This document shows positions 7,618 through 61,603 of a stretch of 64,000 bases of DNA, in pieces; position 1 is the stretch's first letter, and each line of letters opens with the position of its first letter. The translations under genes were made by a program, and so were the position numbers. The notes beneath the pieces were generated by a model. It was not told where the DNA came from. It saw only the letters and a list, made by a program, of their open reading frames with translations, and ran no database searches. This stretch comes from Cristatella mucedo (taxonomy: Eukaryota > Bryozoa > Phylactolaemata > Cristatellidae). The stretch spans positions 1,324,501 through 1,388,500 of the forward strand of contig WPIO01000066.1 in NCBI GenBank assembly GCA_009760855.2. The letters run 5' to 3'.

Positions 7618-8435
7618 GGATCAGGGAGACACCAGAGACCTACGACTCAATGGATTATACGTTCTTGGCAATCGCGGCCATAGCATTACTGATGGCCAGT
7701 GCATTGATGCTTGTCGGCTTGTTGTATGGTGGCTCAATTTACAACATCTCTATCTTAAGTATATCGGCAAACCAATCACTCTCCAGTGGCTTCAGCATAA
7801 CTGCATCTATGCATTCAGCAGCGACGTCCCCGGCCGGCACTGTGAGCCTGGCTCCCTCATCCACCATGAATACATGGACTGTAGGCATACCTTCTTCCTC
7901 GACGACTCAGGGAGCTTCTACTCGAGAAAGTTTACCAGCACAAAATACCGATACTGCTGCTACGATTTCCTCAAAGTCTAGCGGGCTTACTGGAATATTG
8001 TCGTCTACCACTAAAGGAGCACCGTCCCAAAGATCTTCAGCTTTGCCAGCTGTCACTGATGTGGTTGGCAAAGAAAAGAATAATGGCAAAAATAATAACT
8101 GCTGGATACTGGTCGATATATCCACACCTAAACAGCAACCTCTAGGTGGAGACAAATGTGTTGAACCCTTATTAGCTTCGTCAAACAGCGAGATACCTGC
8201 AAAGCTAGATATCATGTTTGCTGAATCATTTCAAATCGTTACTCGAGACAAGGTAGAAAACGAAAGCATTTTATCTAAAAATGAAGCAACTTTCAGCCCT
8301 ACTGTATTTGTCGCAGCAGGCTTGAAGCTTACATCTGAAAAAGTCGAGAATGAAAAAGTCAACGATGTAACAACACAAAGCCTTCACATAGTAAAAATAA
8401 ACGAGGCACGTGAAGAGGGTTTTCTCCCACAATGA
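7618..8435 (+). CDS. Gene A: terminal-type exon with transmembrane helix and Ser/Thr-rich tail
   Basis: An open frame of 261 codons runs from ATG at 7650 to TGA at 8433. It also stays open upstream to an acceptor, CACTTTTTATAG|GG, where the exon would enter in phase 1 like every gene B exon. The protein starts IRETPETYDSMDY, then a helix (FLAIAAIALLMASALMLVG) and a long Ser/Thr-rich region (for example TTQGASTRES), ending in a charged region. Acidic stalk, helix and Ser/Thr-rich tail in one last exon mirrors gene B's terminal exon. It could be the 3' end of an upstream IgSF relative whose Ig exons lie outside or unrecognised. It lacks the basic stop-transfer block, so a single-exon type II or signal-anchored mucin-like protein starting at 7650 is the alternative. 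Confidence 0.5.
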
Positions 8436-8566
8436 AATGCAGATACGAAACTGATATGGTTAGCTGATTACTTGTGTTGAAATTAGGAAATACAGCCCTT
8501 AACCTCTGAAAATGAGAACAATTTGCTAAAAAAGGTTATCAATTTTCACTTAAATGTCATAACCTA

Positions 8567-8572
8567 AATAAA
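8567..8572 (+). promoter_or_regulatory. Poly(A) signal of gene A exon
   Basis: AATAAA lies 132 nt after the stop at 8435, within an AT-rich stretch (CCTAAATAAAACAAAAAG). The close spacing supports the exon being a real 3'-terminal exon. Confidence 0.5.
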
Positions 8573-8867
8573 ACAAAAAGTCCTCAGCTAGAGCCGCCGA
8601 TTTTCCAACTCGGGCAACCCAGAATAAAAAAAATTACCCAAAATGAAGCACAAAGGAATGAAGTTGACAATCAAACCGATCAATTTGGTTTTTCACAAAG
8701 TCTTTGTTAGCTGGGAATGGAAAATATAAAAAAAGCCAAACTAGAGAGTTAGGATTGGCGAGCTATGACAAAGATCCACTTAAATAGTCTAGCAAAGCTC
8801 TTGAAATAAAGAACACAATTTTCTGAGTCATTCTGAGATATTCTTGGTCGCCTTTAATTTTTAAAGT

Positions 8868-11800: not shown

Positions 11801-12260
11801 GATTTCAGCCAAGTTTCAGTTAGGGCGAGCAGGTCGATACCATTTTCAGAAATAAGGTCACTTATTACTAGAGGTTTATTGCACACTGAGCGAGGATTCC
11901 AAAGGCAAGCATTAAGTCTGGCCGATGGGGTACAACAGGCTTGATGACCACGAAGTTTGAGGAATTTACACTGACGCATGTGGGGGATGGTGCTGAGCGG
12001 TTCGAGACAATGCTAGGAATACCGAACGAGCTGGTACTCAGCTTGCAGGTTCCGCCCAACGAGCAGCGTCTGAGCTGGCGTTACCAGCCACAGCTGCAGC
12101 TACGGCTACGGGTGCTTTTCTTTTGTTAATGCATAGTTCATGAATCTTAGCAACAACATTAATATCTAGGAATGCATTTGATATGCGATGACTAAGCGAT
12201 AACAGCTGCTGACGATCGTAACTAACAAGCAGGTTACTAGCCGCCGGCAAAGCTAAGGCA
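8868..12260 (-). mobile_element. LINE A (L2/CR1-like), longest copy, nearly full length, broken
   Basis: Reading the minus strand, the element starts near 12260 with a short Ala-rich leader. An APE-type endonuclease follows (11979-11059) with CLWNPRSVCNK, LTETWL, GDFNAH and the catalytic SDH. The reverse transcriptase (10950-9099) has SPLDPIPT, NYRPVSLLP, LLDLSAAFDT, then FYADDTQLYL with the catalytic YADD. The C-terminal thumb-like region reads HAFVTSRLDFCNSLLTGLP, LHWLPVKQRIDFK and KAWNSL. The 3' UTR ends in GGCGCTTTATCAAGTG and an ATT-repeat tail at 8868-8890. Frameshifts near 11050, 10300 and 10050 make it non-autonomous. It is the reference for the fragments listed below. Confidence 0.92.
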
Positions 12261-18655: not shown

Positions 18656-20091
18656 TTAACACTCAATGCATCATGATTACAATAAAATGCTCGGCAATCC
18701 AAAATCGGTCACTCTTCGCGTTCGAAAACATACTAATGCACACTAGAAGCTCCTTAGGGCTCATGGTGTGTAGGATTTTGTCTTGAACTGATTTGAGCAG
18801 TCGATATTCATGCTATAAGTCAAATATCTATTGTCATTACACAGCAAAAGTAACAAGTTCAGAATATAATTAAGTTTTACTGGGCCTATAGTTCTTAGCA
18901 AGTTACCTTTTATTTACTTTTTGGATTTAGTTTTCATAAATTCCTACTCTACTCTAGATTATGTCGTGCCTGCTGTGCCTTGTCGGTTCGTGCTTACTGA
19001 AGCGTTTTGAATGTGTAAATAATGCAGTCATCAACGTACGTACAGAGATTGTCATGCAATATATTCTGAAAAGAAATAATTTATGTTTCTACGCTGCAGT
19101 CGTATATGCAGCAAGGGAAACTACAGGAGTGAACGAGTGAAGCAAGCTGTGTGATTGAAATTCTTACTTCCACTGGCTGTCTGCCTAATGACTGGCCCCC
19201 CAATTCCGGTGCTGGCAAATGAGTTAAGCTTGAAGTAATAGTTTTAGGACTGAGCCATAAAAAACAATGTATTGATACTTGCTCTTTTTCAGAATCTTTC
19301 AACATAGACATTGCTTCGACTTAGGGAATTTAGTAGCACTACTAATGTTGCAAGTGGTATTCTTTTTACGTTCTCGCACCAGCATTGCTTGTTAAATTTA
19401 ACCATAGGCACATCACAGACAAATTAAAGATCAATCATTATTAGAAACAAACGCTACGAGAGACCGAACTATTTGAACGAGAGTACATGGATACATACTA
19501 CACTTATAGCCAACTAGCTGCTGAAAAATATTTTGATTTTGTAGTCAATGTATTCTACGTATTTAGCTGTTTGGTTAAAGCAAAGCAATTGAAAAAAATA
19601 TAGAAAAGCTCTTCAAAGAAACACGTAACTATCTTTTGGGACAGTGCAATCGGTAGTTTTGTATTAAGCCTCACGATAACACTCGACGACAATAGATTTG
19701 GATATCTTCGTTACGTTTTCTCTAGATTCATCTGCTGATGCAAGGGGTATGGATGATCTTAATGACTTATATCTTACGATGGTCGCAATCTGAAGGTAAA
19801 TTTTTTTAAAAGGCAATGGATGTTACGGAGAGACTGTATTTATTTAGAATTACCTTATAGCAAGCATAGTAGGTCGTGTGCATGCTTTAAGCACACAAAA
19901 TATAGCAAGCACAGTGTTCCGCCATCAGATTGAAGCAATATGAAACAGTAGAATAGGGCTTTCATCAATGTCTATGGTTTTCCACATGCTCTGTGCTTAA
20001 TGTTTCTCTGCAAAGAATGATGTTCTTCACTTGGTACGCTTTTTAACCTAAACTGATTCATAGTAGCAAAGCCGTGGTCGACACAGACTAT

Positions 20092-23605: not shown

Positions 23606-23607
23606 GC

Positions 23608-28725: not shown

Positions 28726-28773
28726 CTTGCTCTACTAGGAACGAAGAAGCAAGAGTTGCCCCAGATATATCAG
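28726..28773 (+). CDS. Gene B mini-exon (16 codons, phase 1-1)
   Basis: The exon follows a strong polypyrimidine tract ending in TTTTTTTTTAG and closes at CAG|GTAGGT. Read in phase 1 it gives x-CSTRNEEARVAPDIS, a charged spacer that joins in frame to the next exon through a G|AT (Asp) codon. It starts with Cys at codon 2, as does the mini-exon at 61547. It probably encodes the mature N-terminus just after the signal peptide. A second, stronger-looking donor (GTAAGT) lies 4 nt downstream at 28778; using it would shift the frame and meet a stop in the next exon. Confidence 0.6.
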
Positions 28774-44100: not shown

Positions 44101-47100
44101 TTTCATTCCATAATATTTGTTTACCCAATATCAAGAAATGCTGTTAGTTAGGGGGCTTCGAACAATAGTAAAGTTTTTAAGGTTCTGTATTGAGAGTTTT
44201 CCAAAACGGAATTTCTTATGGAATGTACCTAATAAATTAAGGAAGATGAAACAATTTAGTGAGATGGCTGTTGCCAAATTTGCTCGTGCTATTAATTACT
44301 ATGTCCATTTCTATTTTATTTGTCATAAGATCTACCATGTCGTCTACATGTGAATACATCTGCTTACTTGCTCATGCCTTCTGCTTGGCTAGCCTGCCAC
44401 TTGCATATGTTACCGACAATTATTTATTAATCCTGTATATTTAGCATCTGTAAAGTGCCTAGAGATTAATTCAGTTCAAAGACAGTGGTAAACCTATGTA
44501 TTATTAATATTATTAATAATATTATCATTGACATTTGAACACCATTGTTTAGGTCATTGTTTAGGTCAAGCCTGATATAATTACATCTATGTCAATGGGC
44601 AACAATCATTCCGGGATTTTCAAGTGCTGACAACTTTGAAATTTCTAGAAAAAATAAAAGAATAAAACTGAGCGATTAATTATATTTTAATGTCATATTG
44701 CCTCTACTAGAAGCAGGCCTGTATCTGATGAGCGACTAAATATTGCATCTATTACGCAGATAAGTGATTTTGATGTCATCACCTAATTACAGGTCTGATT
44801 TCTATCAGTCAGTCACCTGATGCTTCAAGTATAGATGGTAGAGCCTATTTTGGTCTTGGGGAATAATTATATCAACCATTTTTTCAGATTCTGTAGAACT
44901 AGTAGGAAGTATCACAATATTTCATCCCAGAAAGAGTTTTTGAAAAACACAGTGCTTTATTCTGCAACAATTGCAGCTAATCTTTTACTTATATTTTTTT
45001 AAGAGCGCTAGGTACCATGAAAATTTAGAGGTGGCCTCTTTGTGCATAACAATTCAGTGAATAACGAATAAACATCGCTAGCCATTTCAAAAAATTCTCC
45101 CAAAGAACCCACGTTCTTTTTATGGAATGCACACATGCTGCAAGGAAAATGTGTCAATACGGTTAGTGACGGCACGACACTTTCAGCACTTCTATGCATT
45201 CAGAGGGCTATTTTAATGTCTCCTTTAACACTAATTCATCTCATAAATGATTAGCGAAGTAATTTATATATTTAAAGATATAGGGATTACTTTAATAATT
45301 ATCATAGTGTGAAGCAAATGCTATGATATTATACATTTTCATCCCTGCTTATATGAGGTGAAAAAATAAGGCAGTCACGAAGTTTTATTTTTGAGTGAGA
45401 GGGACTCAAGTCAATGAATATGCAGTGATAGCAAGACATCCCCAGCAAGTACACTCTTCTAGTTTGAACTCTAGTGAATACGTAGTAAATGGAGGAATTC
45501 GCCACTAAACCTCTTTTACGGATCCAAGTTGGCTAATTATAAAACTATGATTTCCATGAAAGTACCCCCAGTAATTATGCCTTAACTTTATATTTTAAGG
45601 AACTGCAAATCAAAGATCGCTAACATTATTTGTTACTGAGACTTTTTTTTATTGGTTATACAACAAAGGTACTTAATACAGTGAACATATGCTTTCTGCT
45701 CCAAACTTCACAAAGCTAGAAAAGTTTGACCAATTTACATTGTTAAGTTTTTTGACACAAATTTCTAGGAATATAAGTATTGAAATCTCTATTTTGCAAT
45801 GCCTCCTTCTCGTCCACGTGATATGCACTTTGTCTGTTTAAGGCCCGGAAGACGTGCTCGGTATGAAAAGTTAATAGAATTTAGTATTTTAGCTTATCTG
45901 AATTACCGAAGAGAATAAATGGTTCTCCTTATAATGCCTATCTATTTTGAAGCCTATAAAGTCTTTATATTTTGTCTAGCATGCTTTATTGACGGCGGAC
46001 TGTTTACATAAAACTAAAAGATTCGAACAGCATGCATGGACGTGCAGAAACGGTAGTACAATTTAAAAAATCAAAGACAACTCAAGACACTCTTTCACTG
46101 ATATAGCTAGTAATTCACACGCTGTATTGCTTAAATGGATATCCAAATTTTACAAAATCTTTCCCAGTGAAGATAAGAGATCTCGAGAATTACAGCACTG
46201 ACAGCTACTTATCCACAGGTTTCGCACTGGCAGGCTTTAAAGGTTGTCGAAATAAAGGATATACTTTAGTTCCACATTCGCACAATTAAGGTTATATTTT
46301 AGTAACGCATTCCCTTTAGTTAATAAAGGATGGCTAGTTCATATTCTTTATCGTGTCGATTGGAAGAGTTGAACTTTGAATGCCTTAAAGAATTGTCGAA
46401 CGCGATCGACGGGGCGCCGTTAGTTATTTTCAATTGTACGAAGTCTAGATCTCTGCTAGCTTTCATAGCCGTTAAAGCACTTTTTTCGCTCCTCGCATTT
46501 ACCATGACATGCATGAATCGGGCGATGTATAGTGAATACCGACCACTGTCTTTTTCATCGAAGTGTGTTGCCGCCCAGCTTAAGATGACCATTATTTTTT
46601 GAAATTTGCCTCAGGTCGAATGATCATTCAAAGCTGGATTAGAAAGCTTACTCAATCTCAAAAAACATAACTAGATCTTAAATTAATTTATTGAATTCTC
46701 GTTCTAGACAACTGTTATGCAAATAGCAAGACCTCCGATGTTACGACCTACATCACTAGCATTGGAGAAAAGATATTTGTTCATTGCAACGTATTTTGCT
46801 ATGTAAGCAACCCGGATTTTTCTGTTGGCTTCAAGTTGGTTGGAAGCAAGAACTCTGATCCGCTCATTGTAAGCTGCTCATCCGGAAAATTCAGTCGAGA
46901 TCTAAACTACCAGCTACCTGCCGCAGTGACCTCAAACTGTCAGACCACGAGAGGCAATTTTCCAAGCAGAAGCAACATTGTTGCATCATTCGGTTTTGAG
47001 AATGTTACGATTCGTCTGGAAGGGGACTACAAGTGCTATACACTGGCCTACGGGGAAAGGACAGATTATTCTTTTAGAATATTCGTGCAGAGTAAGTTTA

Positions 47101-50100
47101 TTACGCTTAGTGAATATCGTTCACATTCAAAAAAACTTAGATGCAAGTTTTTTTCAGCAAGTGGTCGCACGTTTTCATTTGTGTGCACATTTAAAAAAAA
47201 CACTCACTGTAGACGCGATTTTCTAAGAATTTCAGCTACCTTTCACCGCAGTTTCTTAATAATCGCCTGCTCTTTAGGACCACCTAAACTCGCAATAAGT
47301 GGCAATGTGGCTGGAGATTTCGAAAACTCCCAACAATACCTCAATTTCACATGCTTGGCTACCGATGGAAGACCTCCAGCGAGGCTGATATGGCTTATAG
47401 ATGGAGATCGTACTTTTATGAACTCTTACCAACCGATGTCAGAATTTGACGATGCTTCGTCTTCTCGGAGTTCAGCAAGTACTATTTTAGTACCAAAAGA
47501 TCGCACGTTTGATGGCAAAAACCTAACTTGCAAGACAGACCAGAGTGGATTGCTACCAGTGGTTACCTCACAACCGGTAACAATTCGGGTATACTGTGAG
47601 TCTATTTATTAGAAACACGTGTGCTTACATGTATAAACGTAACAAAAGGATTATCTCACTATTAGGAACTTCAAAACTGTTAAATAAAAATATTCCATGT
47701 GCGCACCTGGGAGTTGAAAAAAATCTTTTTAGTCTATCTGCCGGCGGTACTACAGATTAAGTACTTGCTATTTCAAGTGTATTTAATGTATTTTATTTCC
47801 GTCTGTAACTCCACAAAATCCAAATAGTATTTGGGTGTTCCGCAGGAGAGTTTCGTATAGCTCAATCACTGTATAGAGTACTCACAACCTAAGCGGCTTT
47901 TGGTACGCATTAGGTAGCCAACAGACTTTGTCTCAGAAAACAAAGAGAAAGTGGGAACCATAGCAGAGTTAAGATAGCAGTTGAGGTAGTGAGTTGCATA
48001 GAAGTAGCAGTTCAGGACCGCTGAAAAAGATGTGCCATAGTCGGCAGTTGGAGAATAGATGTCGTTGCGTAAGAACTGTGGAAGCGAGTTCCACAGTCTA
48101 GGACCTGCAGAGCTAAAGCTTCTGTCGCTAAAGATGGAATGGAACAGCTAATTTATTGTAATATTAATAATAACAATAATGCACTTGATAAAGTGCCCTC
48201 GGAGAGCTCAATCTATCTCTATGGGCTTTACATTTGCTGCAAAGAGAATTGTACACACAGGACCGGAGGGCACGAAGAGGCAGAAACTGGTGTAGCAGTT
48301 CAGCCTCGGTATGAAGGAGTCAAGCCGTGGCGGGCCTTGTGGGTCTTATGTGTCTGGTGCAGCGGAATGTAGTTTGGATAGTGCTCAATAGTCAGGTAAA
48401 TGTTTCGCTTTCAGATATTAACAATCACGTGGTTCATCATCCGTGTTTCCATAGTTACAGAGCTATTAGGTCCACATTCAGTATTGTCTATTTATATTAA
48501 TCCAAAAAATCTAAGAATTCTCAATTGACCATGCAATGGGTTAGCATCTTTCCGAATGCCTTATGCAGAACTCTCCTGCATACAGTCAATGCAGTCTTAG
48601 CGGCATCCTGAAGTTACGGACGGATGTAAATTACATTACATTGCACATTCTTTTTAGAAAACATGGTATATTAATCATTGGTAGCAAACCAATGTCAGCA
48701 AGCGTTACATGGTTGGTAGTGCCAACGTGTGAAATGTTATCAGCGGTAACATATGCAGTGTTAGCACACATAATCACACAAATGAACAATTATCAGGATA
48801 AAAAAATGCTGTAATACATCGTTCCATTTCAACTTTTTCCAAAGTTCTGAAAAGTCCGGCTTTTTTAAATCCGCTTGAGTCAGTTTTAAGGTCTACGAAC
48901 CAGAAATTGAAATGCTATTCTAAGCGAAGGACGAAACATCGTAGTATGCATGCCGGTTAATTGAGAGCCAGCGCCAGTTTGGGAGAATGGAGTGATTTGA
49001 CACTGCCGGCATTAAGCAAGAGATGCCTTCCCGGAGAGATTTCCGCTAACTACAAGGGCCTGCCAGCACAAGCTGGTGGAGCAGCAAGCTCGGCAACGTA
49101 AGTCAGAAGGAGATGCAAAACATGTTTAGACTGGTTAGAAATTAGTATCCTGATCTGAATAAGTCTTAATTTAAGCAAGTTGATTCAGCTAAAATTAGGC
49201 CGACAAGACTCTGGCACTGTAGTAATCATTTAGTGTAAACTTACTTTTTTTTTTACAAACATCTAGATGTGGTGCAGTAGCAACAAGGCATCGTGCAGGC
49301 TGTGCCAAATTTGTGCATTATGTTATCCAATGGTTCAAAAGCTTGTTTTTTTTCTCATAACCAGTAAGATGTTTTTATCTTCATTCAATTTGAGAAGGTG
49401 AGCTGCTTTCCGTGGATACATCTCATAAGTACATATAGCAAGTTAGTAGAGACAGATTGACGTGTTGGTGGAAAAGGAAAGAACCGTTTAATAGTGCAAC
49501 ATAGAGAGCCGTCAGAGATAAAGGTATAGCTGAGACTGTGCTACCGATCACATCAGCAAGAGGGCAAATATAAACCGTAAAAACATACTGAACAAGCATA
49601 AAAACCCGAAATGAAATAGTTCATCCTATTACTTTTGTGTATTCCTATCGATAGTCTGTAGTGTCACACTAAGATAGGATGTGAACCATTGCAGTGCAAT
49701 GGCATTGATGCCCGGGCAATTTGAGTCGCCTCAACAAGAATTAGGTCATACTTAGCATCAACCGCTGACAACAGATTGAGTAAAACAAGCAGAGAAATTT
49801 TACCGTTCTGTAATCTCGATAATTCCGCTATTCACCTGAAGAAACGCTGAGCCTGTAGAGTGAGTACCTATTACACTATCGTGGAACTTATTCCATAGGA
49901 TTACATTTTTAGTACTGTAATTCAGCTAATTTATCACAATATGTTTCAGCGTTCCTGGTAGGAATTCTAGAAGAGAGACTGCACGGAAGCTTTTAAATTT
50001 ATCTTGGCCTAGTGTCGATTTCTCTATTAGAACCTTAAGTGCTGCCTTTTTAAAGGGCATACAGACTCGATGAGAAGCTCAAGAAATAATTATTGCATCA

Positions 50101-50288: not shown

Positions 50289-53227
50289 AACTGACGGTAA
50301 AATGTAGGCGCAAATATATGTAAACGTATATATAATATATATATGTATATATATATGTGATTAGTCGTAAAATAATTTGAAGATTATGCATATTTTCGAA
50401 ACCCCGATGATGTAGCCCAATTTAAAAAAGATTAAACTGACGTTTTTAAGGACACATGAGAAGTGCCTAATAAAATAATTAATACCAAAATATTGGCAGA
50501 ATTACAATTTTAAAATAAATTAAGTAAAATGCGAGATTTACCTTTATTTCATAAAGTTAAAATGTTGTTTATCTGTTATTAAATGCATACCGACTAATAT
50601 TTAAATTTACTACTTTTTTGAACAGTCGTTCCGTCTGATGTCAACGACTTATTCATGTCATCGACTCAGCCTCTTAAAGTTAGTTGCAATATGTTCAGAA
50701 GTAATCCTCCAATTCATGCGGATGAATGTGAATTCTTAGTTTTTGACCTGAAGGACAAAACTGTCTACAGGACTTCACAAGAGAAAGAATATATTGTCAA
50801 GGGTTCTGCAAGCATGAAATTCCGCTGCCGCTGTATCTATCGGCACATGGATATCAAGAAAGAGGTGACTGCGTTTGTATACGTAAACTGGAAAGGTTGG
50901 TTAATTAACTGAATAAAAATTTTCTCTTCTAAGGAGAAATTTGTCCGCGATTTAACTGATCGAATTTGTTGTGAAACATTGCAAAATTTCCCTAATATGC
51001 AGGCAACAAAAGGCCGCTAAACGGCTACTCAATTTCAATGAAAAAATATAGTTTATAATTCAAAATATATACAATTAAGCTGTAAGCTTTAGATAATTGT
51101 TACTTAAAATTAGGAGACTCGCTAGTTTTGAAAGTACTAGCTAACATACGACGGTCTTTATCCCAACTAATACAAAATGCTGTTACAATTTTACCCATAC
51201 GATTTCATGCGATTGGGTTTGTGAGTTTTCGTGATATTGCCTCATCTGGCAAGGTCAGCGTTCCTATTCACAGAATTTCACTTATGGATTCACAGTCAAA
51301 ATGTCGTGCAATTAAGCATCCCTTTTCAAATGCATTTAATTTCCCTGCGACATTATCTCCAACGGACTGGACCATGCAGCCTCAATAGGTTAAACAAGTG
51401 GGTTAGAGCTGTTTTTTCAAAATATGCGTTAGACAACCGAGGTGTAATTTATTGTCATAGAAAACCGTGTTTCGAATTTACCAATCGAATTTCACGATAT
51501 ATCCCGTGACATTTATCATGCAATTGCTGTGTTACTATATTTCGTAATGTCACTACAGCGACAATTCTAGTAATAGGCTCTGTCAACCTGCAGTTTTGAT
51601 AGTTCAGCGTGTAAAACGGCATCATGAATTTACCCATCAAATTTTATATGGTTGAGCAAATGCCTTATATTGATATGACCTCTGATAGCTCATGCAAATA
51701 GAGGCCGTAGATTTAGAAAACGCCTGTGTATAGTAATGCAATTTAGTGGTTAAACGGACAAACCTTTCTTTGTTGTGTAGCATCAAAACAGCAGCTTTGA
51801 AATCTTAGTATAAAACCTTGTGCAACCCGATGCGGATACTGTGATTGAGTATTGCCGCGTACCACCCTTGTATTGGTCACTCCAGCCATTTGCGATAGCC
51901 ATGCAGTCTCTTTGACCTAAATATGAATGATGCTTTTAATAAGATTTGTTCATAATTGGTCTTCTCATTTTGTCATCAATCCAAAATCTATGGAACTAAT
52001 AAGTAGTAGACCAATCACATTGTAAGAATAAAACCAGCTCACCCTGCCATTGGGCTGTGTCATTAAAAGATGGAGCAAATATGCAAAAAGTTTATTTTAT
52101 TTAAAAGGGGAAGCTTCACTTTCATTTTAAGAGCATAACATGAATCGTTGCAATAACACGTCTGTATAGCAACCTCTGAGAGAGTAATCTCTTTATTCAT
52201 AATCACAGGAAAGACAAATTAAAAAGGGCAACTAGATGCTGCAATGCAAAGGTGCGCATAAAGTTCTCTTTTAAATGTCGTAATGTTAGGAGGCGTTGTG
52301 CAAATGGTTGGTAGTGAGTTCCGAGCTTTGGGATCATACAGTGGTACTCATTCAGGGCTTTGTCTCGACCAATTAGCTGCCTTCTTAGGCACGCTCTCCT
52401 ACAGTTACCCTAGATCCAGATCAAACTGGTTGCCAACTTCAAGCTACCGTAAATCAATTTCAGATTTCCTCACTTTGGCATACAAATGCAATATACCTCA
52501 AAATCAGAGTTGAAATCGTTCTACCGGCTTATTAGAAGCGAGTGCTTTTTTTTAGCTTGGATTATGTTCACGACCCCAAAGACCTGACTGACGGCAATTC
52601 CAACTGGCATGTCTATTGATGTGATTGGATGTTCACGAGATTTTTAACGAATCTGAAAACCACCGCTTTCTAACTGATAGACGTAACGCGCGAAATGCCC
52701 TTTGCTTGCTTAACAAGTTTATTGTCACTAACGCGTGCATACTGTGTAATAATCACTAAAAGAGGTAAAAATACGTACGATTAGCTTAATAGGGTGTACA
52801 TTATTATAATCCCGGTTCCGTAAAATACAAGTGCGAATATCTCAGCAACAACTTTACATTGAATCAAAATTCCGATTTATTTCACAGTAACGAATTCGAG
52901 CCTTTTCTTTTCGTTGCAGATCAGGCAGAAGGTTTCTTTGATGAACCTGTCGCCTTCGTGACAACATCTTTGTGCGCCGTTTTTATTCTAGTTATTACCG
53001 TAATCTGTGTGCTGCGGGTAATTAGAAGACGAAAAAATGGTGGATTTGTGCTGGCTTCAACTATTTCGACAAACATATCAACTACGGCGAGTAACGTCAC
53101 TTCAGCTGCATCCGAGAGTTTAGCACCGCCTCAACCACCTCAACCTCCGCCTCAGCTCAAATCAACCTCACCTCAACCACCTCAACCCGCAAAACAGACT
53201 GGAAAAAAGCTAAAAAGGCTGATTTGA
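28726..53227 (+). CDS. Gene B: multi-exon transmembrane immunoglobulin-superfamily receptor (5' end missing)
   Basis: Seven exons joined by consensus GT/AG sites give about 703 residues without the signal peptide: 28726-28773, 33396-33773, 40744-41151, 46708-47091, 47278-47595, 50626-50895, 52920-53227. Every junction is phase 1, so each domain exon is a symmetric 1-1 module, a hallmark of IgSF genes. The order is mini-exon, three V-like Ig domains, a C2/I-like domain, a short C2-like domain, then one membrane helix with a Pro/Ser/Thr-rich tail. Several N-glycosylation sequons sit in the ectodomain. The protein should be a single-pass cell-surface receptor or adhesion molecule. I do not recognise a named orthologue. 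The layout recalls invertebrate allorecognition IgSF receptors, but this is inference. Introns of 2-7 kb (one of 186 nt) are full of LINE debris. Confidence 0.8.
28985..29780 (-). mobile_element. LINE A 3' fragment, old
   Basis: A minus-strand copy lies in gene B intron 1. It is recognisable by the 3' UTR order (GACATGCACAGGTCCGCATG, then the antisense AKHRT region at 29400) and the HAFVTS-region antisense near 29670. Heavily mutated. Confidence 0.7.
29935..30160 (+). mobile_element. LINE B 3' fragment, decayed
   Basis: The region coding YHLNCSPD-type and GCECAIQNSP-type peptides is recognisable (GTACCGAAAGATGCTTAGGC). It is followed by CTTTGTGGAGTCGCAGACGG. In gene B intron 1. Confidence 0.7.
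30186..30225 (+). mobile_element. LINE A tail scrap between short direct repeats
   Basis: TTTATCAAGTGAATTATTAT with an ATT repeat is present without the rest of LINE A. It is flanked by imperfect copies of a GAGTACTGGAGATGA-type sequence (about 30160 and 30252), possibly target-site duplications or a duplicated LINE B end. Confidence 0.45.
32145..32171. repeat. (TA)n microsatellite
   Basis: About 13 TA units followed by a TG-rich stretch in gene B intron 1. Confidence 0.93.
32537..32560. repeat. (ATT)n microsatellite
   Basis: Seven to eight ATT units, probably the relic tail of a LINE A copy, although no 3' UTR is recognisable before it. Confidence 0.85.
32640..33345 (+). mobile_element. 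LINE A 3' fragment abutting gene B Ig exon 1
   Basis: It covers the VLVFVTSHLDVCN region through HITPLLADLYWL to the 3' UTR and a short (ATT) tail near 33335-33345. Only about 50 bp separate its tail from the acceptor of the Ig exon at 33396. Confidence 0.82.
33396..33773 (+). CDS. Gene B, V-like Ig domain 1 (126 codons)
   Basis: The acceptor is ATTCTTTTAG|AT and the donor CAG|GTAAGC; the exon is phase 1-1. The domain has the strand pattern of an Ig V domain but no B-strand or F-strand cysteine. Around residues 105-110 the usual D-x-G-x-Y-x-C motif is replaced by NQGSLHF, and the G strand ends IVVLKVSG. It has only two cysteines, C56 (in PSCHF) and C76 (in VVCIK). The same spacing recurs in the next two domains. 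The exon lies only about 50 nt downstream of a LINE A tail, so its branch point must be very close to that insertion. Ig assignment rests on layout, phase and position beside clearer Ig exons. Confidence 0.65.
35045..35340 (-). mobile_element. SINE family 2, tandem pair with LINE A-type tail
   Basis: Read on the minus strand, the tRNA-like head carries an A box (TGGTCTAGCGGTTAAGGTGC) and B box (GTCGTGGGCTCAAGCCC). The tail GAAGCGCCTGAATAGAGATT then GGTTCTCTTGGGGCGCTA closely follows the LINE A 3' end. The head occurs twice (35262-35335 and 35195-35260) and the tail twice (35058-35115 and 35135-35190), so two copies are fused. Confidence 0.78.
36203..36365 (-). mobile_element. SINE family 1
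   Basis: An antisense copy in gene B intron 2 has the tail TAGTTGATTTCACTGCCTC, body TATGGCTATCACCACAGCTT and B box AGTATTCGAACCC. The A-box end is decayed. Confidence 0.75.
36385..36675 (+). mobile_element. LINE A fragment, decayed
   Basis: The NLKSFGD-AWNSL coding region (CTTTTAGAGACTGTGACTTT) and traces of the 3' UTR are visible up to a short ATA-rich tail at 36680. Heavily mutated; in gene B intron 2. Confidence 0.5.
36680..36950 (-). mobile_element. LINE A 3' fragment
   Basis: An ATA/ATT-repeat tail is followed by the antisense 3' UTR (AAGCCCTGAGAGAACTCAAT, GGGTCAGCATGCAAACATGG). It ends at the ACCCACTAAATGCT landmark and is placed tail-to-tail with the plus-strand fragment before it. 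Confidence 0.78.
37304..37328. repeat. Short (GA)n microsatellite
   Basis: About ten GA units with an initial GAAA interruption, in gene B intron 2. Confidence 0.9.
38066..38154. repeat. (GA)n microsatellite followed by (TA)n
   Basis: About 44 uninterrupted GA units, followed by TA-rich repeats to about 38265. It lies in gene B intron 2. Confidence 0.97.
38880..39035 (-). mobile_element. SINE family 1, head deleted in part
   Basis: An antisense copy has the intact tail (TACTAGCTGATTAAACAGCC), body and B box (GGAATCGAACCC). About 25 bp between the B and A boxes are missing. Confidence 0.78.
40744..41151 (+). CDS. Gene B, V-like Ig domain 2 (136 codons), lacks canonical disulfide
   Basis: The acceptor is ACAATTTTAG|AT and the donor TCAT|GTAAGT, phase 1-1. 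An upstream AG at 40703 would give phase 0, so 40744 was preferred. The domain carries a textbook Ig F-strand motif, SDSGNYSF (residues 100-107), with Phe107 where Cys is expected. No B-strand Cys is present. The two cysteines are C58 (GEPC) and C77 (NVRC), matching the non-canonical pair in domains 1 and 3. N-glycosylation sequons are NVT (19), NYS (104) and NMS near the end. V-like Ig fold is well supported by the E-F motif. Confidence 0.78.
41300..42830 (-). mobile_element. LINE A, 1.5-kb decayed copy
   Basis: A minus-strand copy in gene B intron 3 reaches from the palm (LLDLSAAFDPIHHQ near 42680) through a decayed active-site region and LVISKPSVIQILERMTLKIG to the 3' UTR. The tail near 41300 has almost lost its ATT repeats. 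Multiple stops. Confidence 0.82.
43395..43860 (-). mobile_element. LINE A 3' fragment
   Basis: It has the conserved antisense 3' end (GATAAAGCGCCCTCGGAGAA) with tail, full 3' UTR and the end of the coding region. The 5' end is at about 43860, where unrelated sequence begins. Confidence 0.85.
44440..44530 (+). mobile_element. LINE A-like tail
   Basis: Only the terminal motif (GTAAAGTGCCTAGAGATTAA) and an ATT-repeat tail (44500-44525) can be recognised. The flanking 100 bp may be old 3' UTR. Confidence 0.5.
45000..45210 (-). mobile_element. Very old LINE A 3' UTR trace
   Basis: Antisense landmarks such as ACATGCTGCAAGG, ATACGGTTAGTGACGGCA and TCAGCACTTCTATGCAT appear in the LINE A order. No tail repeat survives. 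Confidence 0.35.
46320..46592 (-). pseudogene. Antisense Ig-like half-domain remnant inside gene B intron 3
   Basis: A 90-codon minus-strand frame begins MVILSWAATHFDEKDSGRYS and continues LYIARF. This is an E strand followed by the Ig motif D-S-G-x-Y with Leu, not Cys, two residues on, as in gene B domain 2 (DSGNYSF). A G-strand-like LDFVQLKI follows. The A-D strands are missing: an in-frame stop lies about eight codons upstream and the sequence beyond is AT-rich. No convincing donor follows. It is probably a broken, inverted copy of a V-like exon. The plus strand is also open here, which lowers confidence. Confidence 0.4.
46708..47091 (+). CDS. Gene B, V-like Ig domain 3 (128 codons), canonical plus extra disulfide
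   Basis: The acceptor is TTCTCGTTCTAG|AC and the donor CAGA|GTAAGT, phase 1-1. The domain has a B-strand cysteine C27 (IFVHCNVF) and an F-strand cysteine C110 in EGDYKCYTL, the canonical Ig pair. It also has C57 (IVSC) and C78 (TSNC), aligned with the unusual pair of domains 1 and 2, plus C3 and C31. An NVT sequon lies at 99. This domain links the other two to a normal Ig fold: it kept both disulfides while they kept only the extra one. Confidence 0.85.
47092..47277 (+). other. Gene B intron 4: 186-nt, frame-preserving, stop-free
   Basis: It begins GTAAGT and ends CTGCTCTTTAG. Its length is 62 x 3 and it has no stop in the gene's frame, so retention would insert 62 residues between Ig domains 3 and 4. 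Every other gene B intron is at least 2 kb. Confidence 0.7.
47278..47595 (+). CDS. Gene B, Ig domain 4 (C2/I-set type, 106 codons)
   Basis: The acceptor is GCTCTTTAG|GA and the donor TACT|GTGAGT, phase 1-1. Standard Ig landmarks are present: C26 in LNFTCLATDG, then RPPARLIW with Trp39 on strand C, and C85 in GKNLTCK. The C-A-T-D-G-R-P-P-A-x-x-x-W pattern is typical of membrane-proximal C2/I-set domains in nectin/CAM-like receptors. Sequons are NFT (23) and NLT (82). The preceding intron is only 186 nt and free of stops in frame. Confidence 0.88.
47795..48375 (-). mobile_element. LINE B 3' fragment interrupted by LINE A
   Basis: The 3' UTR (GTCTGTAACTCCACAAAATC) and C-terminal coding region are complete up to 48155. 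A LINE A tail sits at 48157-48252. The LINE B coding region (CCGTGGCGGGCCTTGTGGGT) then resumes to about 48375. In gene B intron 5. Confidence 0.85.
48157..48252 (-). mobile_element. LINE A tail nested in LINE B
   Basis: About 95 bp of LINE A 3' end with ATT-type tail (ATAATGCACTTGATAAAGTG) interrupts a minus-strand LINE B copy. The LINE B sequence resumes right after it. This dates the LINE A insertion after the LINE B one. Confidence 0.85.
48558..48645 (+). mobile_element. LINE B tail
   Basis: About 90 bp of the 3' end (CAGAACTCTCCTGCATAC, then GGATGTAAATTACATTACAT) remains. It is oriented opposite to the LINE B copy just before it. Confidence 0.6.
48670..50190 (-). mobile_element. LINE A, long decayed copy in gene B intron 5
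   Basis: Landmarks in order on the minus strand are 3' UTR (CAGTGTTAGCACACATAATC), AKHRT/LHWLPVKQ region remnants (48960), palm remnants near 49700, and RT N-terminal region remnants near 50090. Heavily mutated, with no usable frame. Confidence 0.68.
50222..50360. repeat. (CT)n and (TA)n microsatellites
   Basis: A CT tract (about 50232-50268) runs into TA repeats, with more TA repeats at 50325-50356. It lies in gene B intron 5, some 270 bp before Ig exon 5. Confidence 0.93.
50626..50895 (+). CDS. Gene B, Ig domain 5 (short C2-like, 90 codons)
   Basis: The acceptor is CTTTTTTGAACAG|TC and the donor GGAAAG|GTTGGT, phase 1-1. The donor is weaker than the others but is the only one that keeps the phase. 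Cysteines C21 (KVSCNM) and C68 (KFRCRC) make the likely Ig pair, with C35 and C70 as a possible second pair. No strand-C Trp is obvious. It is membrane-proximal, directly before the transmembrane exon. A fibronectin-like fold is the alternative. Confidence 0.68.
50896..52919 (+). other. Gene B intron 6
   Basis: Bounded by GTTGGT and TTGCAG. It contains a decayed LINE A 3' UTR. The 51120-51400 plus frame has no recognisable domain and is not splice-bounded. Confidence 0.6.
52165..52400 (-). mobile_element. LINE A 3' UTR fragment, decayed
   Basis: Antisense landmarks ACTAGATGCTGCAATGCA, CTTTTAAATGTCGTAATG and GAGTTCCGAGCTTTGGGATC match the 3' coding end and UTR of LINE A. It lies in gene B intron 6. 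Confidence 0.6.
52920..53227 (+). CDS. Gene B, terminal exon: transmembrane helix and cytoplasmic tail
   Basis: The acceptor is CTTTTCGTTGCAG|AT, phase 1 entry. A short acidic stalk (QAEGFFDEP) is followed by a helix at about residues 11-35 (TSLCAVFILVITVICVL) and a stop-transfer RVIRRRK, giving type I topology. The tail is Ser/Thr-rich, then proline-rich (PPQPPQPPPQ), suggesting SH3-type binding, then basic. It has no tyrosine, so no ITIM or ITAM. The frame stops at 53225-53227, just after an A6 run at 53203-53208. Another frame stays open to 53415 (see that entry). Confidence 0.8.
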
Positions 53228-55529: not shown

Positions 55530-56190
55530 GTTATGTAATGTATCTCCGTCTGTAACTCCACAAAGTCATAAAGACCATGTGGGTGTTACGCAGGAGAGTT
55601 TGGTATAGCACACTCACAGCCTAAGCGGCTTTCGGTAGGCATTCGGTAGCCAACAGACTTCGTCTCACACAACAAAGAGAAAGTGGGAAGCATAGCAGAG
55701 CCAGGAGAGCAGTTGAGGTAGTAAGTAGCATAGAAGTAGCAGTTCAGGACCGCTGAAAAAGATGTGCCATAGTCGGCAGTAGGAGAGTTGATGTCGTTGC
55801 GTAAGAATTGTGGAAGCGAGTTCCAGAGTCTAGAACCTGCAGAGCTAAAGGTTGCATCGCCAACTGTCTTTAAGCGGATGAATGGGACAGCTATTTTAAT
55901 GTCCTCACAGGACCTGAGGGCGCGAACAGGCTGAAGCTGATGCAGCAGTTCAGCTCGGTACGAAGGAGCCAAGCCGTGGCGGGCCTTGTGGGTCAGCGTA
56001 AGAACTTTGCTCTGTATCCTTTGCTCAACCGGAAACCATCCTAGCTCTTTCAGCAGAGGTGACACGTGCTCAAACCGCTGTGACTTGAAGACCAGCCTTG
56101 CAGCCATATTCATAGTCCGCTTTAGTGGCATAATAGCTTTCTTTGGTACCAGCCAAAAGAGAATTACAATAATCAAGCCGAGACAGAACT
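55530..56190 (-). mobile_element. LINE B, longest copy here
   Basis: The minus strand has a continuous 196-codon frame: AIMPLKRTMNMAARLVFKSQ, FEHVSPLLKELGWFPVEQRI, APSYRAELLHQ, VGDATFSSAGSRLWNSLPQF and the typical C-terminus. This matches the RT C-terminal region of L2/CR1 LINEs. The 3' UTR and ATGTAATGTATC tail lie at 55530-55560. It is 5' truncated. Confidence 0.9.
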
Positions 56191-56194
56191 AAAG

Positions 56195-59100
56195 ATTAAT
56201 CTAGATCCCACCTGACATTGAGTTACCAAGAATCCACCCAAGTTAAAAGAACGTATAGATACGTAGCGTATTTGGCGCTGGCATACTTGAGTTTTCATGT
56301 ACACGTTCAGTTATTTGAACTAATCAGTACTGTAAGAAACCAACTATTTGCACCTTCATCCTTGTATTGCCAAATAATTATAACAAGTTGTGTCCATAAT
56401 ACCGCACAAACGAAGATAAAGAGTTTTAATTTTTTTTAGATTCGAAATATATGGCTAAAAGATTCTGGTGCTCAAAATATTGAACTTCTTTTATTATTTA
56501 TAATAGTTTCGTTAGTAGCCCATTCTCCATACGTGTCAAAATTAAAATCTCATATAAATGGCCGACTAATTACAAAATTGCCTATATTTGTCTTAAATAT
56601 TAGTAAAGGCACAGAAAGAAAGTCATTATACATATTTCTGTTATATACGCAACAATCTGCCGTTAAGCTCATGACGGTACGGCTTCATGATTCCTTTCTT
56701 AATATTTCTTACCACTTCTAATGCAGGCAGTATGGGTGATCTCTTTGATTCAAACGACCTCCATTTTACTAGCTGAAGGTAAACCTATTAAAGCTTACTT
56801 GCAGCAACGCTTAGCCAGACTAAGATATTAACTTTGACAGGTTCAATCTATCAGTAATATACTTTGACTGGTTCAACCTACGAGCAATATTTGGCAGTCA
56901 TAATTTTTTTATCCTAACTTTATGATTGAGAACGACGATCGGTCCGAAGCACAAGTAACTTACTGCCGGTATTTCAACAGTACTTTTAACTGCAAAATTA
57001 GAGCAATATTTTACTTAAATAGGGACCTATAATACGCTACCAATAGGAATAACCGAGGTGAATGCAATTAGTGTAAATGACAGTTTGGGCAGAGACTGAC
57101 GAGGTGAATTAAACAAACCCATTTTGCTGCATTTTATTAGACGTTGAGATCCTTATGGCGTGTTCCTATTGTTTAGAGATGCTGTTAATGATGTACCTGA
57201 TAAATCCCTTTGTTTAGATTTCAAATGCTGATACATCTGTCGCTAGGAAACTGTTGGCAGAGGTGCACCTCCGCCCGTCTCTTAGCCGAGCAGATGCGAG
57301 TTAGTAGAAATGCAGCATTAAAAATATAGACGCACTGCTCACCCAGAATATAAAATGGTGGCTGGTGCCTATACTTTACTCACATATTTCTCCTTGAGAA
57401 GAAAAAAACTGCCAAGCGTCATCAGCCTGGAGGGCTGTCAATGAAGTAGAATGGAAGTAGCGGCACATTATGGAAACAACAAAGATGCCTCACTTAGCAG
57501 CAAGAGAAAGAATGTCGCAGCCTAGGGCGTATGACTTGTATTTCACCGCCTACGACCTGCAAAGCAAGTCTTCGTTTCAAGTAGTAAAGTAAGAAATGCA
57601 ATTGCAAATTAGTTACTTATATATGCGATTAAGATACAAAAGTCTGTAACTAATAGTGCGGTTCAACTAGCCCTATCACTAGTAATAGGGATCAATTTGT
57701 ATAACTCCACGGATAACCTTAATAAGTTTCAGGCAATTTTTACATCTGTTTTAAAGGAAGTATAGACGTAAGGTCTGTGGTCATGTCCACAGTTTCGAAA
57801 TGCATGAGGTGGATAGAAATTTAATTTAGTTTCGAAATGCATAATTTAGCTAGGTTAGAGGTAACATGCAAAATATCAGCAGAATTTTCTTTTTACAAGG
57901 ACCTAAAAATGCCATCGATAACCGGCGCATTGTCAAATAATTTCTTACAGTAATTTCCAAATACGACACTATTCTAGTTTACAGTGCACATATAATGCCA
58001 TCTCCAAAATGTTATTACGATATTCCACTCCTCCAGTTCCAGAAGTAATATCTGGGCATTTTAAGCTGAGGTATGTCTTTATATTGCATGCTAAAATTCT
58101 CTAAAGTGGATATTCCAAATTTACTGTGCGAGATTGAAATGACCGGTTTTCAAATGTTAACGTTGGGAAGTAAATAAGTGCAAATTTCAATCTAAAGATT
58201 ATAGGCAATCAGTAAATACCAAGTATCCTTATATATATTTGTACTGGCATGACTCAAATGATATCAAGATAAGCATTGGTAAGATTAAAAAGCCTCGACT
58301 AAAATCAGTCTGGTCAATTGAAAGGTAAAGCATGCGTTATATGCTAATTAAATGGCGATTTAAATTTAGTTCTGGTTTAAAAACTTGTTTTATTAGTAGT
58401 GTTTACATTAGCACCCATGTAGGCCAGTAGTGGGAGTTATCCCCCAAAAATGGCCACTAATAGTGGGAGTTGTCCCGCCAAAGCACAATTATTAATATCG
58501 TACAGACCAATAAAATTAATGGCATGAAAATTGGCACAAAGAACACTGTTAGCATTAGCTATCGTTTGGGGCGAAATAGCTGCAGTGTTGACCTGATGAC
58601 CTGTAAAAGTCCATGGTCAGGTATAGTACTGCAGCTCAGTCATACACGGCTTTACCACCAAATTTCCCAGATTTACTACCAGTCATTGTAAAAAATATGG
58701 CAAGCCGCTCAAAAGATGCAAGACATTCGACTACACGGTCCCCACACAAACAATATAAAAATCGACATCTCAAACTGTTGACTGTCATCACGACCAAAGC
58801 CCAGGGACATTTTGTGACAGGTACATTATATGCATGCATACCCATCATGCCTGGATGCACATGGGGAACGTGGAGACAGGTGAGCCCCATCCATATTCCC
58901 AAATTCACACAGATTGGCCCAGTATTGACCAAGTTGTTCAATTAATGAGGTACCAAGTACTACTGCTAGGACAACACTCGGAGAAGCCAACTTAAGCTGC
59001 CAAAGCATGTAGGTGACGAAAACATGATTGTTACTATATTTGTCGCTATAAAACATGGAAACACATACTTACGAGCATTTATTTCGAATTTCACATCGAT

Positions 59101-61546
59101 TGGGTCACTATTAGCCTGCCTGTGACATTGTTACGACATGTGAGTGAAAGGATGACAAAGGCTAAGCATGACAAGCACAGCCAGTTTCGACCAAAACAAG
59201 TCTATCAACAGAGGTCCAATGTGCATTCTAGAAGACGGGAATGATTATGTAACTACAATCAATCATATATTCCAAAGTTTTAAGGTGATCGGATCATTTT
59301 TTTAGGAGATATGACATAAATGATAGCAGGCATTGGACTGTCGTTTGCAGATAAACTTGAGAACTTCAAGCTATAACCAAGAGGCAGCACTAGGAAACGC
59401 TATCATCGCATGAACAATTCAATAAATAGATAAATATGGATCTTAGGAATAGCTCAATCTAACAAGATCCTTATGCAGCCTAAGCAGAACATATCCCCGA
59501 TAGGTCTCATACCACACGCAGTCAATCCAGGCCACAGCCGGGCTGTTCACCAGCATTCGCCAATACAAATATCTAACTATTAACGACATAAATGAGAACT
59601 TGAAATCACCCAAATTTCCGTGAATATAAATGAATCAACATTTTCAGACTGGATTCCAGTAAACGACGCGCTAGTTCCATCCAAGTCACCAGGCTGACCG
59701 GCCGCCATACAAAGGACCACTCTGGGCCATCGCCTCATGCTTAATGGCGGCTACAGGAACTGAATCAGCTGTCTCTGGATTCATGCAGTGCCTTGATTAT
59801 GGATTCCCTAGTTACGGCGGCCCCAGCAGCAGTAAATTCTCAATACCATATCCCTAATGCTCGTCTGCTGGCCGAACGAGAGTCACTTCTGGTTTGTGAT
59901 CCGATGTAAGCATACCAATGTAAACATGTTGCTGCCAAGTAAATAAGGAGTGGGCCTTGGAATGCCGTTTACCACCGGTTGCTATGGGCGGGGCATGGAA
60001 GCATAGACAGGACTAAGCACCCTGCAGATAGGGGGTTTACTCTTTTATGACCTTGTTATACTACTTGTTGGACGTGTAATCTCAAGGGCGTGTCATTCCT
60101 GGGAAAGTTATGCGTTTTATCATTTTCCAAAGTTATTTTTGAGGGTCCGTTTAGGGCTGAGTAGCTTATATTCGCAGAGTTCACCAGAAAACCACAGTTC
60201 CGGCTTAGTTATTTTTCAAAGAAAAGTATTTTGTTGAGCGTGATGTACTACTTCCGGTTTAGATGGTTCTTACATAAAATTGTATTGACCATTTCCCAGT
60301 CATCTGACAACCACCAAAATTTGAGCTTGCAATTATATATAGTTTATCTTTATTACGCGAATTTAAAAAAAATTAACAATTCTTAAGAATTTTCATTGGC
60401 TACCCCTTTAACAAAAATAGTACTTCATCAATCAAGTTTAACCTTAATTGTGATGCAAAACTCTCACCCACCAATCAAATCGCTTGTAGAGTCCTGCAAC
60501 TGGCCATTATAATAAATCTGCTGCATCTGATAAAGCAACGTTTTGGCTGGCAATATTTTAGAAATTTTGGTGGAAATAAGTAATGAAGCAACCCCTATCT
60601 TTCGGAAGAATTTGGCATGTTTGCATTTGAGATAGAGGATGCATTTGACAACTAATAGCTACACACTTTTATTTCTATGGCTGGTCGAATTTTGAAATTT
60701 TGACTAAGAATGGACCATCAAAGCTATTTATCACTTCTGATTCTCATCAGTAATCGCAGAATTTCGAAAGCGAAAATCTAGAAACAATACAGCTAGCTCC
60801 ATTGTATGGCATGGTTGAGGCGATTAGAATTATTCTCTAGCTGGCTAACAAAAAGCCTTTGGGCAGTGCTGAAGTTGATGAATTTATTTTCATGCAAACG
60901 GAACACATTTCAGAGCTCGCTGCTGTTGAAGTCACAGTCTGTACTGGTTGATGTACTGATACACAGTAAAGTTGTAATGCTGACCTGAGACGCCAGCCAT
61001 GGCTTGATAATATCATGTCCAGCAGAGCTGATCTACGGTTTTCAACCTAATTTTGTCGTCACATGCTCGTTGGGCTACACGTGAGCTATTCCTTTACATA
61101 GCAATAAGATAATTGGTAACACATAATCTAGCTTGGCAGGTGCGAGACTGTGAAATTCACGTACACAGTATTAATAAACCACATTTTCTTATCCTCGAGA
61201 GGCCGATCGTGGCTGATCTTTAGTAGCATTGGCGAGCTGCTTATTCCATGCTTGCTTCCCAGAATTCCCGGAATTACCCTTCTGACTGACTAATGCGGAT
61301 CAGGTTTTGCTGTTGGAACACATGAAGACCATAGGTGACTACAAATCCTCGTAGATATGCTAAAGTTTTAAGTGTGCATTAGATAACTCATATTCATAAT
61401 ACAAACTAAATAAACGTGGCTTTTTGAAAATATGCTATATGACATAGAATAGTCCTTTAAATAAAAATAAGCACCTCAGACTTACTATGTCTGCATGGGA
61501 TAGCTGCCTCTTATCAGTCAGCAGAGCTGCAATTTTATCGTTTCAG
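56195..61546. other. Intergenic between gene B and putative gene C; nothing supported
   Basis: No exon, known repeat or RNA gene can be supported apart from a short tandem duplication at 56838. The 58400-60050 part is somewhat richer in GC with overlapping short frames on both strands and could be an unrecognised repeat. A weak signal-like MIPFLIFLTTSNAG occurs near 56688 without a good donor. Confidence 0.45.
56838..56895. repeat. ~30-bp tandem duplication
   Basis: Two imperfect copies of ACTTTGACAGGTTCAATCTA followed by a variable GTAATAT-type end. Confidence 0.75.
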
Positions 61547-61603
61547 CATGCCAACGAAAGGAAATGGCGACAGAAGACCCAGAGCCAGACAAAGGTGTTT
61601 CTG
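61547..61603 (+). CDS. Gene C: candidate mini-exon homologous in layout to gene B's
   Basis: The acceptor is ATCGTTTCAG|CA and the donor TCTG|GTACGT; length 57 nt, phase 1-1. It reads x-CQRKEMATEDPEPDKGVS, with Cys at codon 2, a charged middle and Ser before the split Gly/Asp codon. Gene B's mini-exon reads x-CSTRNEEARVAPDIS with the same features. Placement 8 kb downstream of gene B, on the same strand, fits an early exon of a further paralogue continuing beyond the window. With so few residues, homology is suggestive only. Confidence 0.45.

What the first reader, a model, noticed from the sequence alone, without database searches (positions are those of the whole stretch)
7618..61603. Tandem array of IgSF receptor genes, possibly a recognition complex
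Gene B is a clear multi-Ig membrane receptor. A phase-1 membrane/tail exon lies 20 kb upstream (7618-8435). A mini-exon with the same phase, first Cys and charged layout as gene B's lies 8 kb downstream (61547-61603). All are on the plus strand. Together with antisense Ig debris this is what a young, duplicating IgSF cluster looks like. In known invertebrates such clusters (for example the Alr genes of Hydractinia) serve allorecognition. Function here is inferred.
Basis: partly seen in the sequence, partly recalled or inferred. Interest (0 to 1): 0.85.

Follow-up and report, generated by a model that had tools for sequence, protein, structure and literature searches.

The report
Tandem array of Ig-type receptor genes
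The window sits inside a long row of related cell-surface receptor genes in an invertebrate genome; such rows often serve recognition of self, partners or microbes, but what these receptors recognise is unknown.

Summary
Gene B (window 19738-53227) has eight coding exons joined in one phase: signal peptide, mini-exon, three V-like domains (D1-D3), a nectin/SYG-2-like C2 domain, a membrane-proximal domain (Mp), and a membrane/tail exon. The window's own 572-Mb assembly is held, so neighbours could be read. The 7618-8435 exon most likely closes gene A, whose domain exons lie just upstream. The 61547-61603 mini-exon belongs to gene C, whose signal exon is at 56721 and whose domains follow beyond the window. 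The C2 exon recurs 14 times over 725 kb of this contig; at nine of these places two or more further domains match in the same order. The Ig fold is firm for C2, fair for D3, weak for D2, unshown for D1 and Mp. Surface recognition or adhesion is the best reading; allorecognition is possible but untested, as no transcript or polymorphism data exist here.

The parts
7618..8435 (+). Gene A, probable last coding exon: phase-1 acceptor, membrane segment, long Ser/Thr-rich tail, stop (assembly 1332118-1332935)
   Evidence: lies 9.7 kb after gene A's Mp exon, as gene C's membrane exon lies 10.4 kb after its Mp exon. Alternative: an ATG at 7650 could start a separate single-exon gene
19738..19795 (+).
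   Evidence: best and reciprocal match in the window is 56721-56778 (42 of 71 nt; 33 of 58 within the exon). A stricter first scan listed no candidate; the relaxed one listed 4 on + and 1 on -
28726..28773 (+). Gene B mini-exon, phase 1-1 (reads A-CSTRNEEARVAPDIS after the join)
   Evidence: the join reads ..SEAC.. as gene C's reads ..AEAC..
33396..33773 (+). Gene B D1, phase 1-1, 378 nt; V-like by relation to D2 only
   Evidence: 8 genome matches including itself, all on this contig; D1-D2 profile match E 3.7e-4, probability 36%
40744..41151 (+). Gene B D2, phase 1-1, 408 nt; V-like without the canonical B/F cysteines, with a conserved extra Cys pair
   Evidence: 10 genome matches including itself, 9 on this contig
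46708..47091 (+). Gene B D3, phase 1-1, 384 nt; V-type, six cysteines invariant in 9 aligned copies
   Evidence: profile reaches PirB/LILR receptors (E 1.2e-6)
47278..47595 (+). Gene B C2 domain, phase 1-1, 318 nt
   Evidence: Pfam C2-set_2 E 4e-9; profile best match SYG-2 E 1.2e-13; 22 genome matches including itself
50626..50895 (+). Gene B membrane-proximal domain (Mp), phase 1-1, 270 nt; four cysteines invariant in 4 copies, fold not shown
   Evidence: no significant PDB match
52920..53227 (+). Gene B membrane segment and 67-aa Pro/Ser/Thr-rich tail without Tyr, stop
56721..56778 (+). Gene C signal-peptide exon (MQAVWVISLIQTTSILLAE), ends in phase 1
61547..61603 (+). Gene C mini-exon, phase 1-1; gene C goes on beyond the window (D1 at window 66306, membrane exon at 96731)

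Best explanation
A tandem array over about 725 kb with 14 copies of the C2 exon, taken as at least 14 related genes, of which the window shows the 3' end of gene A, all of gene B and the 5' end of gene C. B and C, read in full, each encode a single-pass cell-surface protein: signal peptide, mini-exon linker, three membrane-distal V-like domains (D1-D3), one nectin/SYG-2-like C2 domain, a membrane-proximal domain, a membrane segment and a short tail rich in Ser, Thr or Pro that differs from gene to gene. Shown: exon order, common phase, membrane segments, paralogy, old divergence and overall purifying selection in the one pair measurable. Inferred: the distal domains bind ligands on other cells or microbes, each gene giving its own specificity, with the C2 and Mp domains as a stalk; the tails, in which no ITIM/ITAM was found in A-D, would signal through SH3-type or Ser/Thr-dependent partners or serve adhesion only. 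I put about 0.95 on the array and surface location, about 0.5 on an immune or self/non-self recognition role as against a neural or developmental adhesion code.
For: Exon scan with controls; full-length frame; neighbours A, C, D with the same exon order and near-equal exon lengths; collinear D1-D2-D3-C2 matches for further genes; in the 200 kb read, profiles find each domain once per gene on +, next best hits E 0.12 or worse (gene A's D1 lies outside that stretch); C2-set_2 in 13 of the 14 C2 copies aligned, of 22 in the genome, SYG-2, Kirrel1, JAM and CADM4 in PDB; D3 to PirB/LILR; dN/dS about 0.2 in D3 and C2 of the closest pair tested, D against E; D2 diverges more than C2 among genes A-D (mean identity 31% against 42%).
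Against: No transcript was seen. D1 and Mp have no significant match to any Ig model; D1-D2 kinship has only 36% hhalign probability, and neither D2-D3 nor C2-Mp profiles align. The single-sequence models of D2 and D1 are poor (pLDDT 49 and 36) and fold searches with the D2 model were inconclusive. The D2-C2 difference in rate is modest and could be weaker constraint, not diversifying selection; no sign of positive selection was found. Five of the 14 places on the contig were not shown to have D1 or D2. Antibody constant domains are among the weaker C2 matches. No polymorphism, ligand or expression data.
Confidence: 0.62

Rival explanations
1. A neural or developmental adhesion family: clustered paralogues whose combination of extracellular specificities labels cell types for wiring or tissue assembly, as the Beat/Side, Dpr/DIP, SYG-2/Kirrel or nectin families do (those comparisons partly recalled).
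For: C2 profile's best solved relative is SYG-2, with Kirrel1, JAM and CADM4 further down; no ITIM/ITAM in four tails; purifying selection and old divergence.
Against: Large physically clustered arrays of this size are more typical of recognition families (recalled); faster divergence of distal D2 than of C2 (small effect).
Confidence: 0.33
2. Pathogen receptors of the innate system, like the polymorphic transmembrane clusters of Biomphalaria snails (PMC10875847, passages): each paralogue covers another microbial ligand.
For: Clustered single-pass membrane genes with Ig-type ectodomains; tails differ among paralogues; D3 profile reaches PirB, LILR and KIR, though only over the F-strand motif.
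Against: No expression, infection or diversity data; no positive selection seen.
Confidence: 0.3
3. A histocompatibility-type complex: homophilic, polymorphic allodeterminants like Alr1/Alr2 of Hydractinia.
For: Same layout: clustered single-pass membrane proteins with unusual N-terminal V-like domains.
Against: Not a cnidarian (codes recalled); whether the animal is colonial or fuses is unknown; no polymorphism data; no near-identical second haplotype copy of gene B's C2 exon in the assembly (next best match 53%).
Confidence: 0.12
4. Gene A's piece at 7618-8435 is a separate small gene (ATG at 7650, signal anchor, Ser/Thr-rich secreted chain) and not gene A's last exon.
For: An in-frame ATG stands at the start of the membrane segment; the segment is not followed by Arg/Lys as those of B, C and D are; searches with the membrane exons of B and C found each other and D but did not list this exon among their six best rows.
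Against: Phase-1 acceptor in frame, a membrane segment 16 residues in, a tail ending in the same exon, and the right position after gene A's Mp exon; the same searches listed nothing else between 1322384 and 1332118.
Confidence: 0.2

Closest known systems
Hydractinia Alr genes / allorecognition complex (Huene et al. 2022, paper not held; passages of PMC11067881, PMC11876637, PMC13119343 read)
   Same: Clusters of single-pass membrane proteins with divergent Ig-type ectodomains and low identity between members; at least 41 loci, more than half in three clusters (PMC11067881), or 40 genes with two clusters holding Alr1 and Alr2 (PMC11876637)
   Different: Animal is not a cnidarian by its mitochondrial code; here three V-like domains plus a nectin-like C2 and an Mp domain; no ITIM/ITAM in four tails; polymorphism and homophilic binding untested here; no Alr sequence was available to compare
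Nectin / SYG-2 / Kirrel / JAM / CADM adhesion receptors (C2-set_2 domain)
   Same: C2 domain, directly after a V-type domain (D3)
   Different: Two further V-like domains and an Mp domain that these lack (recalled); large tandem array; tails do not end in an obvious PDZ motif (motif recalled)
Biomphalaria polymorphic transmembrane clusters PTC1/PTC2 and other clusters of membrane genes with Ig, CTL or FN3 domains (PMC10875847, passages)
   Same: Physically clustered single-pass membrane receptor genes of a protostome
   Different: No fibronectin, C-type lectin or TMEM154 match in gene B's domain and membrane exons; diversity not testable here
FREP / VIgL proteins of molluscs (passages of PMC11999971, PMC10875847)
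   Same: N-terminal Ig-type domains, a gene family
   Different: FREPs carry a C-terminal fibrinogen domain and a secretion signal; gene B has no fibrinogen match and ends in a membrane segment
LILR / PirB / KIR receptor clusters of mammals
   Same: Clustered Ig-type receptors with differing tails (recalled); D3 profile touches their F-strand motif
   Different: No homology shown beyond that stretch; no ITIM/ITAM in the tails of A-D

Membership tests
Immunoglobulin superfamily | At least one domain recognised by curated Ig models | tested here: met
   C2-set_2 at E 0.01 or better in 13 of the 14 C2 copies aligned, of 22 in the genome; gene B's copy E 4e-9, over its cut-off
Immunoglobulin superfamily | All extracellular domains Ig-type | tested here: inconclusive
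   D3 PDB profile E 1.2e-6; D2 best 0.093 and Pfam V-set 0.076 in 1 of 4; D1 nothing and Mp nothing significant; fold search of the poor D2 model inconclusive
Clustered IgSF membrane receptors (general kind) | Several paralogous genes in tandem with the same domain order | tested here: met
   14 C2 copies on one contig; collinear exons in A-D and exon matches in order at E, F, G, H and I
Hydractinia Alr / ARC | Cnidarian (hydrozoan) genome | tested here: not met
   COX1 read from the assembly's mitochondrial contig: AGR stands at conserved Ser places, ATA at Met, AAA at Lys; a nuclear contig holds 96-97% identical copies, so the contig is the host's. The conserved places, and that cnidarians read AGR as Arg, are recalled
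Hydractinia Alr / ARC | Sequence homology to Alr1/Alr2 | not tested
   no Alr sequence was at hand
Hydractinia Alr / ARC | High allelic polymorphism controlling fusion | not testable with these tools
   one assembly, no reads or second individual
Nectin / SYG-2-like adhesion receptors | V domain followed by a C2-set_2 domain | tested here: met
   D3 then C2 in genes A-D; C2 profile to SYG-2 E 1.2e-13; that D3 is V-type is fair, not firm
Nectin / SYG-2-like adhesion receptors | Orthology to a named adhesion gene | not tested
   no animal protein set at hand
FREP / VIgL | C-terminal fibrinogen or lectin domain, secreted | tested here: not met
   no such match in gene B's domain and membrane exons; membrane segment at residue 638
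Dscam | Many I-set Ig domains with fibronectin III repeats | tested here: not met
   no FN3 match in gene B's domain and membrane exons
Biomphalaria PTC clusters | High diversity between individuals | not testable with these tools
   one assembly, no reads or second individual

The most novel reading that the evidence does not exclude
A histocompatibility-type complex in a protostome: an old tandem array whose unusual V-like domains (no canonical disulphide in D2, a conserved extra Cys pair instead) set self/non-self identity, arisen apart from Hydractinia's Alr and Botryllus' fuhc.
Probability: 0.1. Interest if true: 0.9.

Novelty: new variant of a known kind. Interest (0 to 1): 0.52.

Why it matters
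It turns a guess from one window into a defined gene family with exon-level models: 14 clustered copies of anciently diverged surface receptors with a fixed domain order, in which gene B's D1, D2 and Mp have no Pfam match. If population data show high diversity in D1-D3, it would be a recognition complex in a protostome, where such loci are little known (recalled); if not, it is a large clustered adhesion family, useful for asking how clusters of this size persist without recent duplication.
Full report
What was checked. I tested the pieces in the window and then in the assembly that holds it.

Gene B in the window. The domain exons begin and end in phase 1 with ordinary splice signals. A scan of the whole window for such exons of 230-480 nt (splice matrices from recalled general frequencies) gave 9 candidates on +, which collapse to five gene-B exons and one retroelement-like piece; the - strand gave 2, other phases 3 in all, and ten third-order Markov shuffles (one strand, phase 1) 2 in all, none of 300 nt or more. 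D2's acceptor at 40744 fell below the scan's cut; it was chosen because the D2 exons of A, C and D start at the same residue. Pfam recognises only the C2 exon 47278-47595 (C2-set_2, E 4e-9). Joined, the eight exons give one frame of 723 residues with a membrane segment at residue 638 and a 67-residue tail rich in Pro, Ser and Thr without any Tyr. The predicted signal peptide is only moderately hydrophobic.

The neighbours. The window is contig C624:1324501-1388500 of a 572-Mb assembly, and 1310001-1510000 was fetched. Gene D: D1 near 1430523 (borders not fixed), D2 1451888, D3 1453935, C2 1454419, Mp 1459776, membrane near 1463447; its signal and mini exons were not identified. Exon lengths agree: D2 408, 408, 408 and 399 nt; D3 384, 384, 384 and 378; C2 318 in all four. 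Profiles of the five domains, run against all 4887 ORFs of 25 residues or more on both strands of the 200 kb, found each domain exactly once per gene on + (D1 in B, C and D; gene A's lies outside); the next best hits were E 0.12 on + and 0.15 on -. The profiles include these same copies, so their strong hits are by construction; the telling result is the lack of others. The antisense remnant is therefore not supported.

The whole array. The C2 exon of gene B has 22 matches in the assembly including itself: 14 on C624 between 969.8 and 1694.4 kb (7 on each strand), five on C652, one each on C99, C199 and, weakly, C659; a second, divergent C2 query gave 21 matches, all of them among those 22. 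D1 has 8 matches, all on C624; D2 10, nine on C624; D3 11, eight on C624. All the C624 matches fall into genes in the same order. By start of match, D1, D2, D3, C2: E (1547691, 1571224, 1573234, 1573702), F (1606694, 1616936, 1618945, 1619425), and on the - strand G (1673240, 1654491, 1650586, 1649970), H (no D1 match; 1705931, 1694727, 1694144) and I (1002257, 980291, no D3 match, 969790). The other five C2 places on C624 gave no D1, D2 or D3 match in these searches; at three of them a D3-like open exon, whole or partial, was read beside C2 (L016, L022, L023). One C652 copy carries a stop in its C2 frame. Six + genes stand in the middle, - genes mostly on either side.

Age. Between genes A-D protein identity per domain is 26-53%, and synonymous differences are saturated (pS 0.67-0.91). 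The closest pair tested, D against E (the other pair, a - strand C2 pair, was saturated too), has dS about 1.27 with dN/dS 0.22 in D3 and 0.19 in C2. These are old genes under overall constraint, not a young burst. Mean identity over the six A-D pairs rises from D2 (31%) through D3 (36%) and Mp (39%) to C2 (42%): membrane-distal domains diverge somewhat more, a small effect from few, non-independent pairs; D1, comparable only between B and C, is at 37% there, against 41% (D2), 43% (D3, Mp) and 53% (C2).

What the domains are. C2: C2-set_2 in 13 of the 14 copies aligned, of 22 in the genome; best solved relative SYG-2 (E 1.2e-13), then Kirrel1, JAM and others among antibody constant domains. 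D3: six cysteines invariant in nine copies; profile reaches PirB and LILR (E 1.2e-6) but only across the F-strand stretch. D2: an invariant Cys pair (positions 57 and 76) but no canonical B and F cysteines, and a D-S-x-x-Y stretch; only weak V-type matches (PDB 0.093; Pfam V-set 0.076 in one of four). D1: nothing in PDB, but its profile aligns with D2 over 97 columns (E 3.7e-4, probability 36%), while D2 and D3 profiles do not align. Mp: four invariant cysteines, no significant match (best 0.075), and no alignment with C2. Single-sequence AlphaFold models of D2 and D1 were poor, and the fold searches with D2 inconclusive. So 'clear multi-Ig receptor' is too strong: one domain is certain, one fair, three inferred.

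The animal. COX1 on the 21-kb contig C688 has TGA as Trp, AGR at conserved Ser places, ATA at Met and AAA at Lys, the invertebrate code of protostomes (code tables and conserved places recalled). A nuclear contig holds copies 96-97% identical, so the contig belongs to the host. Cnidarians, tunicates and echinoderms are thereby excluded as far as recalled codes go; the phylum stays open. Whether it is colonial is unknown.

Mechanism and rivals. The shown parts are the exon order, the membrane segments, the paralogy and the old divergence. The rest is inference: distal V-like domains as the binding end, C2 and Mp as stalk, tails that differ between genes and in which no ITIM or ITAM was found in A-D, so any signal must run by other means. 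Adhesion or wiring, pathogen recognition and allorecognition all fit this anatomy; I rank general surface recognition first, and allorecognition as a minor branch because nothing on fusion or polymorphism is known. Against known systems it shares layout with Hydractinia's Alr clusters (passages of PMC11067881, PMC11876637, PMC13119343) and with snail polymorphic transmembrane clusters (PMC10875847, passages), but membership in neither is shown, and for Alr the host test is not met.

Noticed in passing
53095-53415 (+): A second frame, open and rich in charged, Ser, Thr and Pro residues, overlaps and runs past gene B's stop at 53227; alternative tail, an indel in the short Pro-codon repeat or an assembly error are all possible.
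   Followed up: partly
9099-12012 (-), with look-alike pieces at 1850-2482, 41482-42460, 55586-56188 and elsewhere: LINE-type retroelement with endonuclease and reverse transcriptase matches and many fragments that look related by eye.
   Followed up: no
assembly contigs C111 (10.71-10.82 Mb, - strand), C332 (14.1-14.7 Mb), C77 (0.35-0.38 Mb): Other dense groups of Ig_3 exon matches in the same genome, none of them matched by this family's exon searches; C332 shows many single-Ig frames and may be another cluster.
   Followed up: no
assembly contig C652, 483-1552 kb (- strand): Five C2 relatives (27-32% identical to gene B's), three of them with D3 matches beside them: a second, divergent group of the same family.
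   Followed up: partly
L047 (C688:14115-18455): Mitochondrial gene order cox3-atp6-cox1-nad3 on one strand, and large mitochondrial copies in nuclear contig C166.
   Followed up: partly
46323-46610 (-): Antisense frame with a DSGRYSLY stretch that looks like an Ig F-strand; no Pfam match and no family-profile hit, so probably chance.
   Followed up: yes
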